Shown here: piece after piece, positions 1 through 6,567 of the stretch
Layout of the letters: each line of letters begins with the position of its first letter
Numbering within the stretch: position 1 is the stretch's first letter
Origin: a virus
IMG/VR virus record: IMGVR_UViG_3300017971_000864
Span: 1 to 20,510 of that record
Direction: 5' to 3' (one strand)
Length of the DNA: 20,510 nucleotides
Notes under the pieces: model-generated
Told to the model about the DNA's origin: nothing
Databases searched by the model: none
The model's input: only the letters and a program-made list of their open reading frames with translations
Translations under genes and position numbers: made by a program

Positions 1-48
1 CTGTTACGAAAACAAGTGCAGGTTTCGCCCTGCAAAAATGGAGCTAAC

Positions 49-525
49 ATGAAACGTGGACCAAAAGCCAAGCCAACCAAACTCAAAGTTCTTGAAGGCA
101 ACCCGGGCCGGCGCCCGTTGCCGAAGAAAGAGCCTACGCCGTCTAAGGCCAAGAGTGTAGCCGCGCCCGCTGAGTTGGACGCGGAAGGCAAGAAGGCATG
201 GCGGCGCGTTGTGAGACAACTCAAGGCGATGGGGTTGTACACGGAGATTGATAGAGACGCGCTCATGTTGTATAGCGACTCATATTCGTTGTGGCTGAAA
301 GCGTCGCGCCGCTTGCGGAAGGACGGGATATTGACGAAGGGCGCGCTTGGCGCACCGAAACTGCACCCGGCCGTGCTTGTTGCTGACAAAGCGTTCCAGC
401 GCATGAAGGCGATGATATCCGCGTTCGGCATGACGCCGGCGGATCGTGTGGGCTTGGCCGGTGAAGAGAAAGAAGAGGTTGACGAATTTACGGCGCATCA
501 ACAGCGGCGAAAGAAAGGGGAGTGA
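49..525 (+). CDS. Terminase small subunit, P27 family
   Basis: Predicted 158-residue DNA-recognition subunit of the packaging motor; in this family it binds phage DNA and hands it to the large subunit. The N-terminus MKRGPKAKPTKLKVLEGNPG, followed by a basic proline-rich stretch, is the hallmark of P27-type small terminases. It is followed by the helical core (MGLYTEIDRDAL near 62-73, then YSLWLKA) and FGMTPADRVGL near the C-terminus. The ATG at 49 is chosen because the homologous segment starts there and GGAG lies at 40-43; an in-frame ATG at 16 would add a non-conserved leader. The stop is one base from the next gene's ATG. The large subunit does not follow directly: a membrane gene, a repeat array and an IS110-like gene intervene. 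Family assignment is by recognition of the sequence pattern. Confidence 0.9.
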   Translation: MKRGPKAKPTKLKVLEGNPGRRPLPKKEPTPSKAKSVAAPAELDAEGKKAWRRVVRQLKAMGLYTEIDRDALMLYSDSYSLWLKASRRLRKDGILTKGALGAPKLHPAVLVADKAFQRMKAMISAFGMTPADRVGLAGEEKEEVDEFTAHQQRRKKGE

Positions 526-526
526 C

Positions 527-847
527 ATGAGCGATAGCACGAGGTTTTTGCGCGGCGTTGTAGTCGGCATTATCGGGTCGTTTGTGTTCTGGTGTTTTGT
601 CGGATGCGCAGCGATTGGCGTTGCGAAGCATTTCGACAACCGTCCATACGTGGTGAGCACCGCGCTTGAGGATGCCACAGTAAACGAGGCGGCACACTAT
701 AAGGCCGGGTACGAGGACGGTTATCACGCAGGCGTCAATGACGGCGCACAGGCGGCAACCAGGCAACTCGCCATTGTACTTGAGAACGGGCTGAACCACG
801 CCAAGGTGACGGAAGGGTTGAAGCGAAATGCCGTTGACCACAAGTAA
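527..847 (+). CDS. Small membrane protein, one N-terminal helix, unknown function
   Basis: A 106-residue protein not recognised as a known family. After a short N-terminus (MSDSTRFLRG) comes a hydrophobic segment, roughly residues 9-33, containing VVVGIIGSFVFWCFVGCAA, which should form a transmembrane helix or an uncleaved signal anchor. The C-terminal part is soluble, with alternating Gly/Asp/Tyr/His (YKAGYEDGYHAGVNDGAQAA). The start at 527 has GGGGAG at 517-522 and sits one base after the small terminase stop, implying translational coupling. The stop codon TAA (845-847) lies inside the first AAGTAACCC of the repeat array. The Cys at the end of the hydrophobic stretch (VGCAAIG) could suggest a lipobox, but no strong case can be made. 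It could be a moron gene acting at the host membrane, but that is inference from location and topology. Confidence 0.75.
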   Translation: MSDSTRFLRGVVVGIIGSFVFWCFVGCAAIGVAKHFDNRPYVVSTALEDATVNEAAHYKAGYEDGYHAGVNDGAQAATRQLAIVLENGLNHAKVTEGLKRNAVDHK

Positions 848-1201
848 CCCAACTCCCCAGAGCGCGCCAAAGGATGGAAGTAACCCAAAAGGTAGAAGCG
901 CGCCATGTGAGGGAAGTAACCCAAGATGACAGAGCGTGCCAAATTGCCAGAGCAACCCTCGATTAGTAAGCGTGCCATTGAGTGCAAGCAACCCACACTC
1001 CAGAAGCGTGCCATGAAGCGCAAGCAACCCACATTGTAGAAGCGCGCCAAATTAGGCAAGCAACCCTCGACAAGCAAGCGTGCCAGATGAGGCAAGCAAC
1101 CCACATTGTAGAAGCGTGCCAAATTGCAGAAGCAACCCATGAGGGTAAAGCGTGCCGTGCGGCGCAAGCAACCCAAAGAGGCGGAGCGAACCAACAAACA
1201 G
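842..1201. repeat. Tandem array of alternating 18-bp half-units (36-bp period), 10 full units
   Basis: A 9-base motif AGC-NNN-CCA starts at 843, 861, 879, 897 and then every 18 bases up to 1185, without a single-base slip. Type A is AGYAACCC(A/T), at 843, 879, 915, 951, 987, 1023, 1059, 1095, 1131 and 1167. Type B is AGCGYGCCA, at 861, 897, 933, 969, 1005, 1041, 1077, 1113 and 1149 (the last ends in G), with a degenerate copy AGCGAACCA at 1185. Each motif is followed by 9 variable bases, usually ending in A. The first three type A copies carry AGT and later ones AGC. Some variable stretches recur (CATTGTAGA at 1032 and 1104; AATTG or AATTA after type B at 942, 1050 and 1122), so the units partly derive from each other. 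The array fills the gap between the membrane gene and the IS110-like gene; its first motif overlaps the upstream stop codon. Confidence 0.95.
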
Positions 1202-1212
1202 GGAGAAGTGAC

Positions 1213-2091
1213 ATGGCGAACAGGGAAGCGCTTAGGACAAGTGTGCGGGGCGCCTATGACATTCAGAAACTCCGCATAGCGATTGGAAACCGTATTGTCG
1301 CCAACTGGAAAGTGAGGATGGGGCAGGAGCCTGGCAAGCCAGAGGACGAGTTGGACGCAGAAGGGAAACGGATTCTCGCCGACTTGCGTGCCGAGTATGC
1401 CAAAATCACAGACGCCGTCGGAGAGTTCCCAAAGCCCAAAACGTTCGCAGGCATGGAACACGACGGCATAATCTCAGACTATACAGAGCTGTCGCTTGTC
1501 GCTGAATTCATTGCGCTGGAGGTGAGCGAGTCAAACCATTTCAAGAGGCTTGGGCACATCCTTGAGGACTATCCTATTTGGACTGAGTTCATGAAGAATG
1601 TGAAAGGGATCGGCCCGGCGATGGCTGCGTGCATCATTTCGGAGCTGGATCCGCACAAGGCAAAGTACCCTTCTTCATTCTGGCGATACTGCGGACTGGA
1701 CGTTGCTGACGACGGCCGAGGCAGGAGCAAGCGCGCTGAACATCTTGTTGACGTGGAATACGTCAACGCGGAAGGCGAAGTCCAAACGCGGAAAGGCATC
1801 ACGTATAACCCGTTCATCAAGACGAAACTCATGGGCGTATTGGCTTCCTCGTTTCTGCGGGCCGGTGAGAACAAGTACGAGCGAATCTATCGTGCATACA
1901 AGTTGCGCATCGAGAACCATCCCAGCCATGCCGAGAAGACCAAAGGCCAGAGGAACCGCATGGCGTTGCGCTACATGATCAAGATGTTTCTGATTGACCT
2001 GCACATGAAATGGCGGGAGTTGGAAGGGCTCCCTGTTTCGGTTCCCTACCATGAGGCGAAACTCGGCATTAAACACGGTGAAGTGATTTGA
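1213..2091 (+). CDS. IS110-family transposase C-terminal-domain-like protein (no recognisable DEDD domain)
   Basis: A 292-residue protein. Residues about 105-165 match the pattern of the IS110/IS116/IS902 C-terminal domain (Transposase_20): a helix, then VKGIGPAMAACIISELD (130-146, helix-hairpin-helix-like GIG), SSFWRYCGL (154-162), and after a charged insertion KGITYNPFIKTKLM and a helical tail (ALRYMIKMFLIDLHMKWREL). In this family that domain supplies the catalytic serine and works with an N-terminal RuvC-like DEDD domain and a bridge RNA. Here the first 100 residues show no DxG-type start or DEDD pattern, and no clear SG motif follows the GL; Ser172 in GRGRSKR is only a positional candidate. 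ATG 1213 is chosen for GGGAG at 1201-1205; the frame is open upstream to 982, but that part translates the repeats. The array resumes exactly at the TGA. It may be a catalytically reduced phage relative of IS110 enzymes rather than an active transposase. Confidence 0.72.
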   Translation: MANREALRTSVRGAYDIQKLRIAIGNRIVANWKVRMGQEPGKPEDELDAEGKRILADLRAEYAKITDAVGEFPKPKTFAGMEHDGIISDYTELSLVAEFIALEVSESNHFKRLGHILEDYPIWTEFMKNVKGIGPAMAACIISELDPHKAKYPSSFWRYCGLDVADDGRGRSKRAEHLVDVEYVNAEGEVQTRKGITYNPFIKTKLMGVLASSFLRAGENKYERIYRAYKLRIENHPSHAEKTKGQRNRMALRYMIKMFLIDLHMKWRELEGLPVSVPYHEAKLGIKHGEVI

Positions 2092-2171
2092 GCGTGCCAA
2101 TGGTTGAAAGCAACCCAATTCCCTTGAGCGCGCCAGGCCGGTAAAGCAACCCAGAATGCTGAAGCGATTTA
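2091..2171. repeat. Continuation of the alternating 18-bp array after the IS110-like gene
   Basis: Type B AGCGTGCCA at 2091, type A AGCAACCCA at 2109, type B AGCGCGCCA at 2127 and type A AGCAACCCA at 2145 keep the exact 18-base spacing. A fifth position, 2163, reads AGCGATTTA and looks decayed. The variable stretches are ATGGTTGAA, ATTCCCTTG, GGCCGGTAA and GAATGCTGA, none of which matches the left array. The first motif overlaps the stop codon of the IS110-like gene (TGA at 2089-2091). The phase relative to the left array is shifted (1266 bases between type A copies at 842 and 2108 is not a multiple of 36), so this is a second block and not one array interrupted in register. About 25 bases without visible repeats separate it from the large terminase start. 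Confidence 0.92.
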
Positions 2172-2196
2172 GTGTAGACTAATAACGCGGGTAACG

Positions 2197-3900
2197 ATGA
2201 GTGACAACATTCACACATGGCGGACGCAGCTCGACAAGTCGCGGCGGGCCGCGTTCGACAAGGGATACAAACGCGCCAAGGCGGACAAATGGTCTCAGTA
2301 TGTTCGGAACTACAACGACGTTGCGGCGATTGCTGACGGGTGTCGTTTCGATGCTGACGCGGCTGCGCACGTCACTAACTTCATCGAAACGTTTCTTTGT
2401 CTCACAAAAGGCGCCGCGGCCGGCAAACCGTTCATCCTCATGCCATGGCAGCGGGACGCCGTGGAACGCGCGTTCGGTTGGAAACGCTCAAACGGCAACC
2501 GTCGGTTTCGGAAGATTTATATCGAAATCCCGAAGAAGAACGGCAAGAGCGAATTGCTTGCCGCCATCGCGCTTTACATGTTGTGCATGGACGGAGAAGA
2601 AACGCCCGAAGTTTACGGCGCAGCAGTGGACAGACAACAGGCACGACTTGTTTTCGACGAGGCGGCCCGGATGGCGGCTGCGAGCCCTCAACTCCGCAAA
2701 CGACTACGCCATCTCCCCTCCACGGGCCGCCTCGTCTACCCCGCAAAGAACGGGCTCTACCGCGTACTGTCGGCGGACGTGGCCCAGCACGAGGGCCTGG
2801 ACATCTCATGCGCTCTTGTCGATGAGTTGCACGTACACAAAAAACGCGACCTTTGGGACACGTTGCTATTCGGCGGCGTCGCGCGCGTGGAGCCGTTGTT
2901 GTTTGTCATCACGACGGCCGGCGAATATGACGAATCAAGCATCGGTTGGGAACAGCATTCGTATGGCACGCGCGTCATCGAAGGGGTCATCGAGGATATC
3001 GAGTACTTGGCCATCATCTATGCAGCGAACAAAGACGACGACTGGACAGACCCGGCCGTGTGGCGCAGAGCAAACCCGGCACTTGGAACAGTTCTCCGTG
3101 AAGAGGACATGGCAGCGGCGTGCCGGGAAGCGGAGAACGAACCGCGAAAACTGTCTGCCTTCCTGCGATATCGGCTGAACATTTGGGTGCAGGCTACTGA
3201 GGCGTGGATGGACATCGACCAATGGAAATCGTGTGTCGGGGATTATGATGACACCGACATGGAAGGGAAAGCGTGCTGGGGCGGGCTGGACCTTTCCAGT
3301 AGCGATGACCTGACAGCGTTCGCGCTGATATTCCCCGCGTCTGAAGCCGAAGGCAAATACCGGCTGTTATCCTGGCATTGGATTCCTCGGGACCGGCTTG
3401 TAGAGAAATCCCGCCAGAACAACGCGACTTACGAGGACTGGTATCGCAACGGATGGCTGAACCTAACTGAAGGCGACGTGATTGACCTGAAGGCCATCCG
3501 GGCGGCTATCGGGCAATTGGGCAAACGGTTTGACATCCGCGGTATCTGTTACGACCGGCTCTTCATGGCCACGGAGATAGCGCAGAACTTGCAGGACGAG
3601 GACGGGTTCGAGGTGGTCGCGCATGGCATGGGCTATCTCAGTATGAATCCCAGCATGGTGGAGATGGAACGGCTAGTGCTTGGGCGCCGGATAGAGCATG
3701 ACGGCAACCCGCTGTTTTTGTGGGAGATGGCTAATGTGGTGGCGAAAATTGACCCGGCGGGCAACGTGAAGCCCGACAAGAGCGAACGGCGCCGCAAGAT
3801 TGACGGGCCCGTGGCGGCCCTGATGGCGCTTACAGGCGCGTTGAAGATGGACATCCACAAACGGAGTGTGTTAGATGACCCGGCTTTCTCGGTTTGGTAA
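2197..3900 (+). CDS. terL: Terminase large subunit (ATPase and nuclease)
   Basis: A 567-residue motor protein that pumps DNA into the prohead and cuts the concatemer. The ATPase half shows an adenine-binding region (FILMPWQRD, 79-87), a Walker A variant PKKNGKSE (112-119), Walker B ALVDE (206-210) and the coupling motif VITTAG (238-243). The nuclease half shows the RNase H-like acidic pattern: GGLDLSSSDD (Asp365), ICYDR (Asp453) and KIDGPVA (Asp536). The length and motif layout fit the Terminase_1 (YmfN-like) family that pairs with P27 small subunits in HK97-type phages. The ATG at 2197 is preceded by a weak GGGT at 2189-2192. The 3' end overlaps the next small gene by 26 bases. Catalytic motifs are intact, so the motor should be functional. 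Confidence 0.95.
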   Translation: MSDNIHTWRTQLDKSRRAAFDKGYKRAKADKWSQYVRNYNDVAAIADGCRFDADAAAHVTNFIETFLCLTKGAAAGKPFILMPWQRDAVERAFGWKRSNGNRRFRKIYIEIPKKNGKSELLAAIALYMLCMDGEETPEVYGAAVDRQQARLVFDEAARMAAASPQLRKRLRHLPSTGRLVYPAKNGLYRVLSADVAQHEGLDISCALVDELHVHKKRDLWDTLLFGGVARVEPLLFVITTAGEYDESSIGWEQHSYGTRVIEGVIEDIEYLAIIYAANKDDDWTDPAVWRRANPALGTVLREEDMAAACREAENEPRKLSAFLRYRLNIWVQATEAWMDIDQWKSCVGDYDDTDMEGKACWGGLDLSSSDDLTAFALIFPASEAEGKYRLLSWHWIPRDRLVEKSRQNNATYEDWYRNGWLNLTEGDVIDLKAIRAAIGQLGKRFDIRGICYDRLFMATEIAQNLQDEDGFEVVAHGMGYLSMNPSMVEMERLVLGRRIEHDGNPLFLWEMANVVAKIDPAGNVKPDKSERRRKIDGPVAALMALTGALKMDIHKRSVLDDPAFSVW

Positions 3901-4057
3901 ATGGCTACTGACCTGCGCGGATACCGTCCTGATTCCCTTGCTATCCCTGGCCTGCATCGGCGTCGGGGCCACGGCGGCATGGGGTTGGCAAATCGGCCTA
4001 ATTGTAGTCGGCTCAATTGTTTGGCTTGACTGCACCCTACATTCACTGGTACATTAA
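3875..4057 (+). CDS. Small two-helix membrane protein, unknown function
   Basis: A 60-residue protein beginning inside the last codons of the large terminase gene, with GGAG about 8 bases upstream (3862-3865). Two hydrophobic stretches are visible: roughly residues 11-36 (TCADTVLIPLLSLACIGVG and onward) and 38-56 (WQIGLIVVGSIVWLDC). This predicts a helical hairpin in the inner membrane with a basic N-terminus (MTRLSRFGKW). No family recognised. Small two-helix proteins in phages are often holins or superinfection-exclusion factors, but this location between terminase and portal is not a lysis cassette, so no function is assigned. A short 43-base gap precedes the portal start. Confidence 0.65.
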   Translation: MTRLSRFGKWLLTCADTVLIPLLSLACIGVGATAAWGWQIGLIVVGSIVWLDCTLHSLVH

Positions 4058-5735: not shown

Positions 5736-6567
5736 CTGCGGACTATGGGCTATCGCACCGGGCTGGGAACGGCGCATCCTCGACGCAATGTCCCCGGATA
5801 CCGGGCGGGAGGCTGAGGTGACGGCCGCGGCAGGCCGGGCCACAGCAGACTATACCAAAGTCGGCGCATCGGCGGTCATCCCGGTCAAAGGCGTCTTGAC
5901 AAAGCACTTCAGCATGTTCACGCTGTTCTTTGGCGGCACGGCGTATTCCGGGATTGGCCGGGCATTGGCCGCGGTCGTCAACGACGACGAGGTGGAGTCT
6001 GTCACGTTACAGATTGATTCGCCAGGCGGGTCGGTGGACGGGCTCCCGGAACTCGGCCAAGCTATCCAGACAGCGCGAGAGCACAAGCCGGTGAACGCGT
6101 TTGTGGACGGGCTTGCGGCGAGCGCAGCGTATTATCTGGCGTCCAATGCAGAGACCGTAACAGCCGCACACGAGTTGAACGAGGTCGGGAGCATCGGCGT
6201 TAGGATGCTGGCCTATGACTTTTCGAGGGCCTTCGAGGATGACGGTATCCGGCCCGTGGTCATTGATACCGGCGTGCACAAATCCGCTGGCGCCATGGGC
6301 ACAGAAATCACTGAGGAACAGGCGGCCGTCTGGCAGGCGGCTGTCAATCGGTGGATGGACCACTTTGTTGAAGTTGTGGCGAAAGGCCGTAGCATGCCAC
6401 AGGAAAGCGTGCGGGCGGCTGGCGACGGCAGAATGTTCTACGCTGAGGACGCGGCGCGTATGGGCCTGATAGACGGTGTTGCCGGGTCGTCTGCGCAACC
6501 GGCGCGGCGCCAGGGGATGCGAACAGACACGGCGAAAGTACGGCAGCGGCTGCGCGGCGTCCGGTGA
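5725..6567 (+). CDS. Prohead protease, S49 (SppA/protein C-like) family
   Basis: A 280-residue serine protease expected to cleave the scaffold (delta) part of the capsid protein during head maturation. S49 signatures: SVTLQIDSPGGSV (92-104) forms the oxyanion region; DGLAASAAYYLAS (128-140) holds the nucleophile, probably Ser133; NEVGSIGV (152-159) is the conserved strand; and Lys186 in DTGVHKSAG is the likely general base of the Ser/Lys dyad. The start at 5725 has AGGAG at 5713-5717 and overlaps the portal. The C-terminus is short and basic. In HK97-type modules the protease sits between portal and capsid, as here. No fused scaffold is visible, in keeping with the scaffold being the N-terminal coiled coil of the capsid protein. 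Confidence 0.92.
   Translation: MLTDCGLWAIAPGWERRILDAMSPDTGREAEVTAAAGRATADYTKVGASAVIPVKGVLTKHFSMFTLFFGGTAYSGIGRALAAVVNDDEVESVTLQIDSPGGSVDGLPELGQAIQTAREHKPVNAFVDGLAASAAYYLASNAETVTAAHELNEVGSIGVRMLAYDFSRAFEDDGIRPVVIDTGVHKSAGAMGTEITEEQAAVWQAAVNRWMDHFVEVVAKGRSMPQESVRAAGDGRMFYAEDAARMGLIDGVAGSSAQPARRQGMRTDTAKVRQRLRGVR

What the first reader, a model, noticed from the sequence alone, without database searches (positions are those of the whole stretch)
842..1201. 36-bp array of two alternating motifs with 9-base variable stretches
Twenty half-units keep exact 18-base spacing over 360 bases. Both motif types are the same frame, AGC-NNN-CCA, but the centre alternates strictly between AAC and GYG (GTG or GCG). 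Conserved alternation with variable intervening bases is not a plain tandem repeat, not a coding microsatellite, and not a CRISPR array (units far too short). It suggests that two different things are recognised alternately, for example two binding surfaces of a dimer, or two arms of an RNA. The variable stretches are purine-rich on this strand and change in every unit while the motifs hold, so selection is acting on the motifs.
Basis: seen in the sequence. Interest (0 to 1): 0.9.

Follow-up and report, generated by a model that had tools for sequence, protein, structure and literature searches.

The report
TIGR-TasA RNA-guide array in a phage
The alternating repeat is a TIGR array, a string of short two-part guide RNAs read by a neighbouring IS110-like protein (TasA) that probably binds matching DNA; it is a phage-borne member of a system published in 2025, so the kind is known, but what this one targets is not.

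Summary
Positions 825-1193 and 2091-2171 are two dual-repeat TIGR arrays (Tandem Interspaced Guide RNA; Faure et al. 2025, PMC12045711) on either side of a gene (1213-2091) for a 292-aa nuclease-less Tas protein (TasA). Edge repeat AGCGYGCCA and loop repeat AGYAACCCA are each 9 nt, separated by 9-nt spacers, giving 36-nt units. The protein passes NCBIfam's TIGR_Tas cut-off (124 bits against 100). Its model matches TasH and TasR best (Z 20-22), IS110 next (about 15.6) and Nop5 more weakly. Relatives in viral contigs and bacterial MAGs nearly all have 36/37-nt dual-repeat arrays beside the gene. Over 508 unique window-type units the spacers carry no sequence information, while the repeats are nearly fixed. 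Most likely the array is processed into about 12 guide RNAs (tigRNAs) that lead a TasA dimer to 18-bp DNA sites without cutting. Targets remain unknown: none in this contig, no excess in 0.9 Mb of related loci, only chance-like hits in IMG/VR. A side result is worth following: two phage contigs with identical TasA proteins share only 3 of 22-28 guide units.

The parts
825..833 (+). 5'-truncated edge repeat (GAAATGCCG; TGCC retained), start of the TIGR array, inside the 3' end of the preceding ORF
   Evidence: sequence; a truncated first edge repeat is typical of TIGR arrays (PMC12045711)
843..1193 (+). Upstream TIGR array: 10 loop repeats AGYAACCC[A/T] alternating with 9 full edge repeats AGCGYGCC[A/G], 9-nt spacers, 36-nt period (about 10 tigRNA units counting the one that starts at 825); last edge (1185 AGCGAACCA) degenerate or 3'-truncated
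1213..2091 (+). tasA: 292-aa solo-Nop Tas protein (IS110 C-terminal-like, no nuclease domain); coding 1213-2088, stop TGA 2089-2091
   Evidence: NCBIfam NF052498 TIGR_Tas 124 bits; Pfam Transposase_20; PHROG 4285; PDB TasR E 3.5e-24 and TasH E 8.6e-17; fold match to TasH/TasR Z 20-22
2091..2171 (+). Downstream TIGR array: edge 2091, loop 2109, edge 2127, loop 2145, 3'-truncated edge 2163 (AGCGATTTA); 2 tigRNA units; overlaps the last base of the tasA stop codon
49..525 (+). terS, P27-family terminase small subunit (context)
   Evidence: Pfam PF05119, NCBIfam TIGR01558
2197..3900 (+). terL, terminase large subunit (context)
   Evidence: Pfam PF20441/PF03354

Best explanation
This is a TIGR-TasA system in the packaging cassette of a tailed phage. 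The arrays at 825-1193 and 2091-2171 are transcribed on the + strand and processed inside each edge repeat into about 12 guide RNAs of 36 nt, ordered half edge - spacer A - loop - spacer B - half edge. Each guide binds a symmetric dimer of the solo-Nop protein TasA, with edge and loop repeats docking on the two protomers. Spacers A and B (9 nt each) pair with opposite strands of an 18-bp DNA site. With no nuclease domain, TasA most likely binds and bends the site without cutting, probably to hinder competing mobile elements or to regulate genes. Shown here: the array anatomy, both truncated ends, membership of the protein in the Tas family, the missing nuclease domain, array-gene linkage across relatives, and hypervariable spacers between fixed repeats. 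Inferred from the published systems: transcription, processing, dimerisation, DNA binding. Speculative: the biological purpose. The confidence given is for the identification and the guide mechanism, not for the purpose.
For: Array geometry (9-nt repeats, 9-nt spacers, 36-nt unit, alternating edge/loop, 5'- and 3'-truncated edges, blocks both upstream and downstream of the gene) equals the published definition. The tas gene passes the curated TIGR_Tas cut-off, a profile of the family finds TasR (3.5e-24) and TasH (8.6e-17) in the PDB, and the predicted fold matches TasH and TasR (Z 20-22) above IS621/ISCro4 (Z about 15.6) and Nop5 (Z 8.4). Model residue 1-3 aligns to TasH residue 65 and TasR residue 111, so the N-terminal nuclease domains are absent. 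All 11 viral relatives and at least 8 of 11 bacterial-MAG relatives have a 36/37-nt dual-repeat array beside the gene. Over 508 unique units the edge-repeat core positions (except the Y) carry 1.7-2.0 bits, the loop positions 1.0-2.0 (except the Y), and all 18 spacer positions 0.0. Repeat ends change together between loci: AG...CCA is shared by both repeats here, and CG starts both in L012.
Against: No RNA or binding data exist for this phage. No target was identified. No clear promoter or terminator was found around the arrays (the published arrays often end in a terminator). Structure confidence is moderate (pLDDT 77, residues 61-85 poor).
Confidence: 0.93

Rival explanations
1. The locus is a relic of an IS110-type RNA-guided transposon: the gene is a truncated IS110 transposase and the repeats are decayed bridge-RNA or target copies.
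For: Pfam and PHROG call the gene an IS110 C-terminal/transposase, and its fold also matches IS621 at Z about 15.6.
Against: It scores only 17.7 bits for IS110 in NCBIfam (cut-off 140) but 124 for TIGR_Tas (cut-off 100). The DEDD domain is absent. Dozens of divergent loci keep the repeats, and TasH/TasR match better.
Confidence: 0.03
2. The repeats are protein-binding sites on DNA, for example a packaging (pac) site or iterons bound by TerS or another dimer, since they lie between terS and terL.
For: Position between terS (49-525) and terL (2197-3900); fixed 18-bp spacing.
Against: In relatives the arrays track the tas gene, not the terminase genes: no viral TasA locus had a match to this TerS or TerL in the held flanks, and neighbours vary. 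Six fetched TerL relatives (L102-L107) have neither the motif nor a 36-nt period.
Confidence: 0.02
3. The array is coding: a low-complexity protein read in an open frame (for example 982-2091 + or 724-1461 -).
For: 18 nt is a multiple of 3; one + frame from 982 and several - frames are open for long stretches.
Against: All three + frames contain 4-8 stops over 825-1212. About 14% of units in relatives have spacers of other lengths, nearly all frame-breaking. Spacers carry no information at any position. The tas gene has its own start at 1213 after GGGAGA.
Confidence: 0.01

Closest known systems
TIGR-TasA dual-repeat systems (Faure et al. 2025, Science, PMC12045711; e.g. Flavonifractor plautii FpTIGR)
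   Same: Solo-Nop protein, alternating edge and loop repeats, 9-nt spacers, 36-nt units, arrays on either or both sides of the gene, truncated edge repeats at the ends, phage home
   Different: Own repeat sequences (AGCGYGCCA / AGYAACCCA; published arrays also differ from locus to locus); sits between terS and terL; no parB-like partner found among its neighbours; RNA and DNA activity not tested here
TIGR-TasR and TIGR-TasH (structures 9mty, 9w04, 21kl)
   Same: Nop core, best sequence and fold matches, same array logic
   Different: Those carry an N-terminal RuvC or HNH nuclease; the window protein begins where the Nop part begins and has none
IS110 RNA-guided transposases (IS621, ISCro4)
   Same: Homologous Nop-like RNA-binding C-terminal domain; guide RNA with two pairing segments (known for IS110)
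   Different: No DEDD catalytic domain; an array of many short guides instead of one bridge RNA
Box C/D snoRNPs (Nop5, Nop56/58)
   Same: Nop fold (Z about 8) and C/D-like repeat ends
   Different: No fibrillarin or L7Ae partner seen; guides are 36-nt array units

Membership tests
TIGR-Tas, dual-repeat type | Array of two distinct alternating 8-12-nt repeats with about 9-nt spacers, 36-nt unit | tested here: met
TIGR-Tas, dual-repeat type | Adjacent gene for a Nop-domain Tas protein | tested here: met
   NCBIfam NF052498 124 bits vs cut-off 100; PDB profile hits to TasR/TasH; fold Z 20-22
[quoted passage not shown]
   825-833 and 2163-2171, possibly 1185-1193
TIGR-Tas, dual-repeat type | Rho-independent terminator after the array (typical, not obligatory) | tested here: inconclusive
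   only one weak terminator-like site, inside tasA, fewer than in shuffles
TIGR-Tas, dual-repeat type | Box C/box D-like repeat ends covary between edge and loop repeats of a locus | tested here: met
   AG...CCA in both repeats in most loci, CG at the start of both in L012; extra edge pair C3-G6 kept; A2-T7 replaces G2-C7 in edges (not loops) of L002-L007
TIGR-Tas, dual-repeat type | Processing to 36-nt tigRNAs bound by Tas | not testable with these tools
   needs RNA sequencing
TIGR-Tas, dual-repeat type | Tandem-spacer DNA targeting | not testable with these tools
   biochemistry needed; computational search gave no target
TasA subtype | Nop domain alone, no HNH or RuvC | tested here: met
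   only Transposase_20 in Pfam; model start aligns to TasH 65 / TasR 111
IS110 transposase | N-terminal DEDD catalytic domain; passes the IS110 family cut-off | tested here: not met
   17.7 bits vs cut-off 140; alignment to IS621 starts at its residue 125
CRISPR array | One repeat type of 25-36 nt with spacers of similar length | tested here: not met
   two alternating 9-nt repeats; the neighbouring gene matches no PADLOC model

The most novel reading that the evidence does not exclude
TIGR-TasA arrays behave as fast-evolving guide libraries for phage-phage competition: near-identical phages with the same TasA replace most guides while keeping the repeats. The window's guides would be aimed at rival phages, possibly at conserved packaging genes; guide 3 has its only exact IMG/VR match, with a 2-bp gap, inside another phage's terL. 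Several window spacers also resemble each other more than expected, which would fit growth of the array by unit duplication followed by spacer change.
Probability: 0.2. Interest if true: 0.75.

Novelty: new member of a known kind. Interest (0 to 1): 0.4.

Why it matters
It recovers, from raw sequence, a system published only in 2025 and adds a phage locus plus dozens of related arrays. The role of nuclease-less TasA and the origin of TIGR spacers are stated open questions (PMC12045711). Pairs of closely related phages with the same or similar TasA but mostly different guides (L004/L006, L056/L067) give a direct way to study how guides are gained and lost. If such systems let phages block rivals, they would be a compact programmable DNA binder without a motif requirement.

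Tried and rejected
Coding, DNA-site, CRISPR and IS110-relic readings were tested and rejected (see rivals). Rfam found nothing in 1-4000, and PADLOC (2023) has no match to the tas protein. DNA similarity of 842-2171 to 50,697 phage records: none; protein similarity of TasA: two distant ones, about 29%.

Target searches used a rule derived from the paper (top strand = spacer A + 0-2 bp + reverse complement of spacer B; the orientation follows from the reported 3' overhangs). Own contig: best hits have 4 mismatches, as in pair-shuffled controls. 736 unique guide pairs against 0.9 Mb of related loci: 0 exact, 3 with one mismatch, 28 with two; controls 0.15, 2.45 and 31.9. Five window guides against all IMG/VR: hits in one terL (L101), one tail-fibre-like gene present in two contigs (L108, L109) and one unplaced ORF (L110); two guides had none.

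Fetching TerL relatives gave only six, about 33% identical, so no close relatives are held in which to look for targets.

Full report
From 843 to 1175, nineteen half-units with exact 8-nt cores alternate AGYAACCC and AGCGYGCC at strict 18-nt spacing, and a twentieth at 1185 is degenerate. The composite pattern occurs ten times in the window and never in 100 shuffles. At 825-833 the sequence GAAATGCCG keeps the 3' half of the second motif, followed by one more 9-nt stretch. Directly after the neighbouring gene, at 2091-2171, four more half-units and a half motif (AGCGATTTA) follow.

The contig is a tailed-phage fragment: terS 49-525, a small ORF, the array, an IS110-like gene 1213-2091, the second array, terL 2197-3900, portal, S49 protease and capsid. 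The gene encodes 292 aa. Pfam finds only the IS110 C-terminal domain. NCBIfam places it above the cut-off for TIGR_Tas (124 vs 100 bits) and far below that for IS110 (17.7 vs 140). A nine-sequence profile finds TasR (3.5e-24) and TasH (8.6e-17) among solved structures. The AlphaFold2 model (pLDDT 77) matches TasH and TasR at Z 20-22, IS621 and ISCro4 at about 15.6, and archaeal Nop5 at 8.4. The model starts where the Nop parts of TasH (residue 65) and TasR (residue 111) start, so it has no room for their nuclease domains. It is therefore a TasA.

This fits point by point the TIGR-Tas systems of Faure et al. 2025 (PMC12045711): two alternating 8-12-nt repeats with 9-nt spacers, 36-nt units, arrays upstream and/or downstream of a Nop-domain gene, a 5'-truncated first and 3'-truncated last edge repeat, and mostly viral or mobile-element homes. 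By their criteria AGCGYGCCA, with its extra C-G pair, is the edge repeat, and A-rich AGYAACCCA the loop repeat. A published unit runs half edge, spacer A, loop, spacer B, half edge. Spacer A and spacer B pair with opposite strands of one DNA site.

Related sequences agree. Eleven viral relatives of the protein all have 36-nt periodic DNA beside the gene, as do at least eight of eleven relatives in bacterial MAGs, including Flavobacteriales, Hydrogenedentota, Selenomonadales, Moraniibacteriota, Acidipila and Spirochaetaceae. An exact-pattern scan of IMG/VR gave 88 stretches. Of 46 fetched loci in which whole units of this repeat type were parsed, 28 encode a relative of this Tas protein on the same fragment, and several of the others are neighbouring pieces of the same contigs. 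Repeat sequences differ between loci, but the outer ends of edge and loop tend to change together (AG at the start of both in most, CG in both in L012). In L002-L007 the edge pair G2-C7 is replaced by A2-T7. In 508 unique units of the window type, all 18 spacer positions carry 0.0 bits, edge core positions except the Y 1.7-2.0 bits, and loop positions except the Y 1.0-2.0 apart from the final A (0.9). About 14% of all parsed units have spacers of other lengths, and all three forward frames contain stops, so the array is not coding.

Mechanism. Shown: anatomy, family membership, lack of a nuclease domain, linkage, spacer variability. Inferred from the published biochemistry: transcription, processing into about twelve 36-nt guides, binding to a TasA dimer, and pairing of the two spacers with opposite strands of an 18-bp site. 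The purpose is unknown even in the literature; the authors propose blocking of competing elements, regulation or help to integrases. I looked for targets and found none in the contig, no excess for 736 guide pairs in 0.9 Mb of related loci, and only chance-like matches for five guides in IMG/VR. One of these lies inside a terL gene of another phage (L101), but a single hit of this kind is not evidence.

The position between terS and terL suggested a packaging-site reading. Against it, none of the viral TasA loci had a match to this TerS or TerL in the held flanks, neighbours vary, and six TerL relatives lack the motif and the period.

Spacer turnover. L004 and L006 have the same 283 TasA residues (838 of 849 nt identical) and mostly 94-99% identical DNA downstream of the array, yet only 3 of 22 and 28 units are shared, and identity falls to 60-76% over much of the array, close to what fixed repeats with replaced spacers would give. 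L056 and L067 share 6 of about 36 units, partly in a different order, with flanks about 87% identical. In the window itself, spacers resemble each other more than column-shuffled controls (23 pairs with at least 6 of 9 matches against 8.1 expected, reached in 0 of 2000 shuffles), which may reflect unit duplication. How TIGR arrays change is called an enigma in the paper, so this is worth follow-up, but I have not tested a mechanism.

Verdict: a real, well-preserved TIGR-TasA system in a phage packaging cassette; a new member of a known kind.

Noticed in passing
L004 and L006, 3795-5830: Two phage contigs with identical TasA proteins (283/283 aa) and mostly 94-99% identical downstream DNA share only 3 of 22-28 tigRNA units: guide replacement between fixed repeats.
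   Followed up: partly
L056 and L067 arrays: Related contigs (flanks about 87% identical) share 6 of about 36 units exactly, and the shared units are partly out of order.
   Followed up: partly
contig IMGVR_UViG_3300033551_000003 (L075, L040, L052, L049, L095): TIGR arrays of the same repeat type lie in several places of one 65-kb contig, up to tens of kb from the only tas gene found (in L095), suggesting arrays that act in trans.
   Followed up: no
window 834-1193: Window spacers resemble one another more than expected (CATTGTAGA occurs twice; 23 pairs with at least 6/9 matches vs 8.1 expected), hinting at array growth by unit duplication.
   Followed up: partly
L118, about 5979-6337: A Moraniibacteriota relative has a 37-nt unit with a different second repeat (AAACAGAAACAG) but the common edge repeat AGCGAGCCA.
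   Followed up: no
L101 1814-1833: The single exact IMG/VR match of window guide 3 (2-bp gap) lies inside another phage's terL gene; could be chance.
   Followed up: partly
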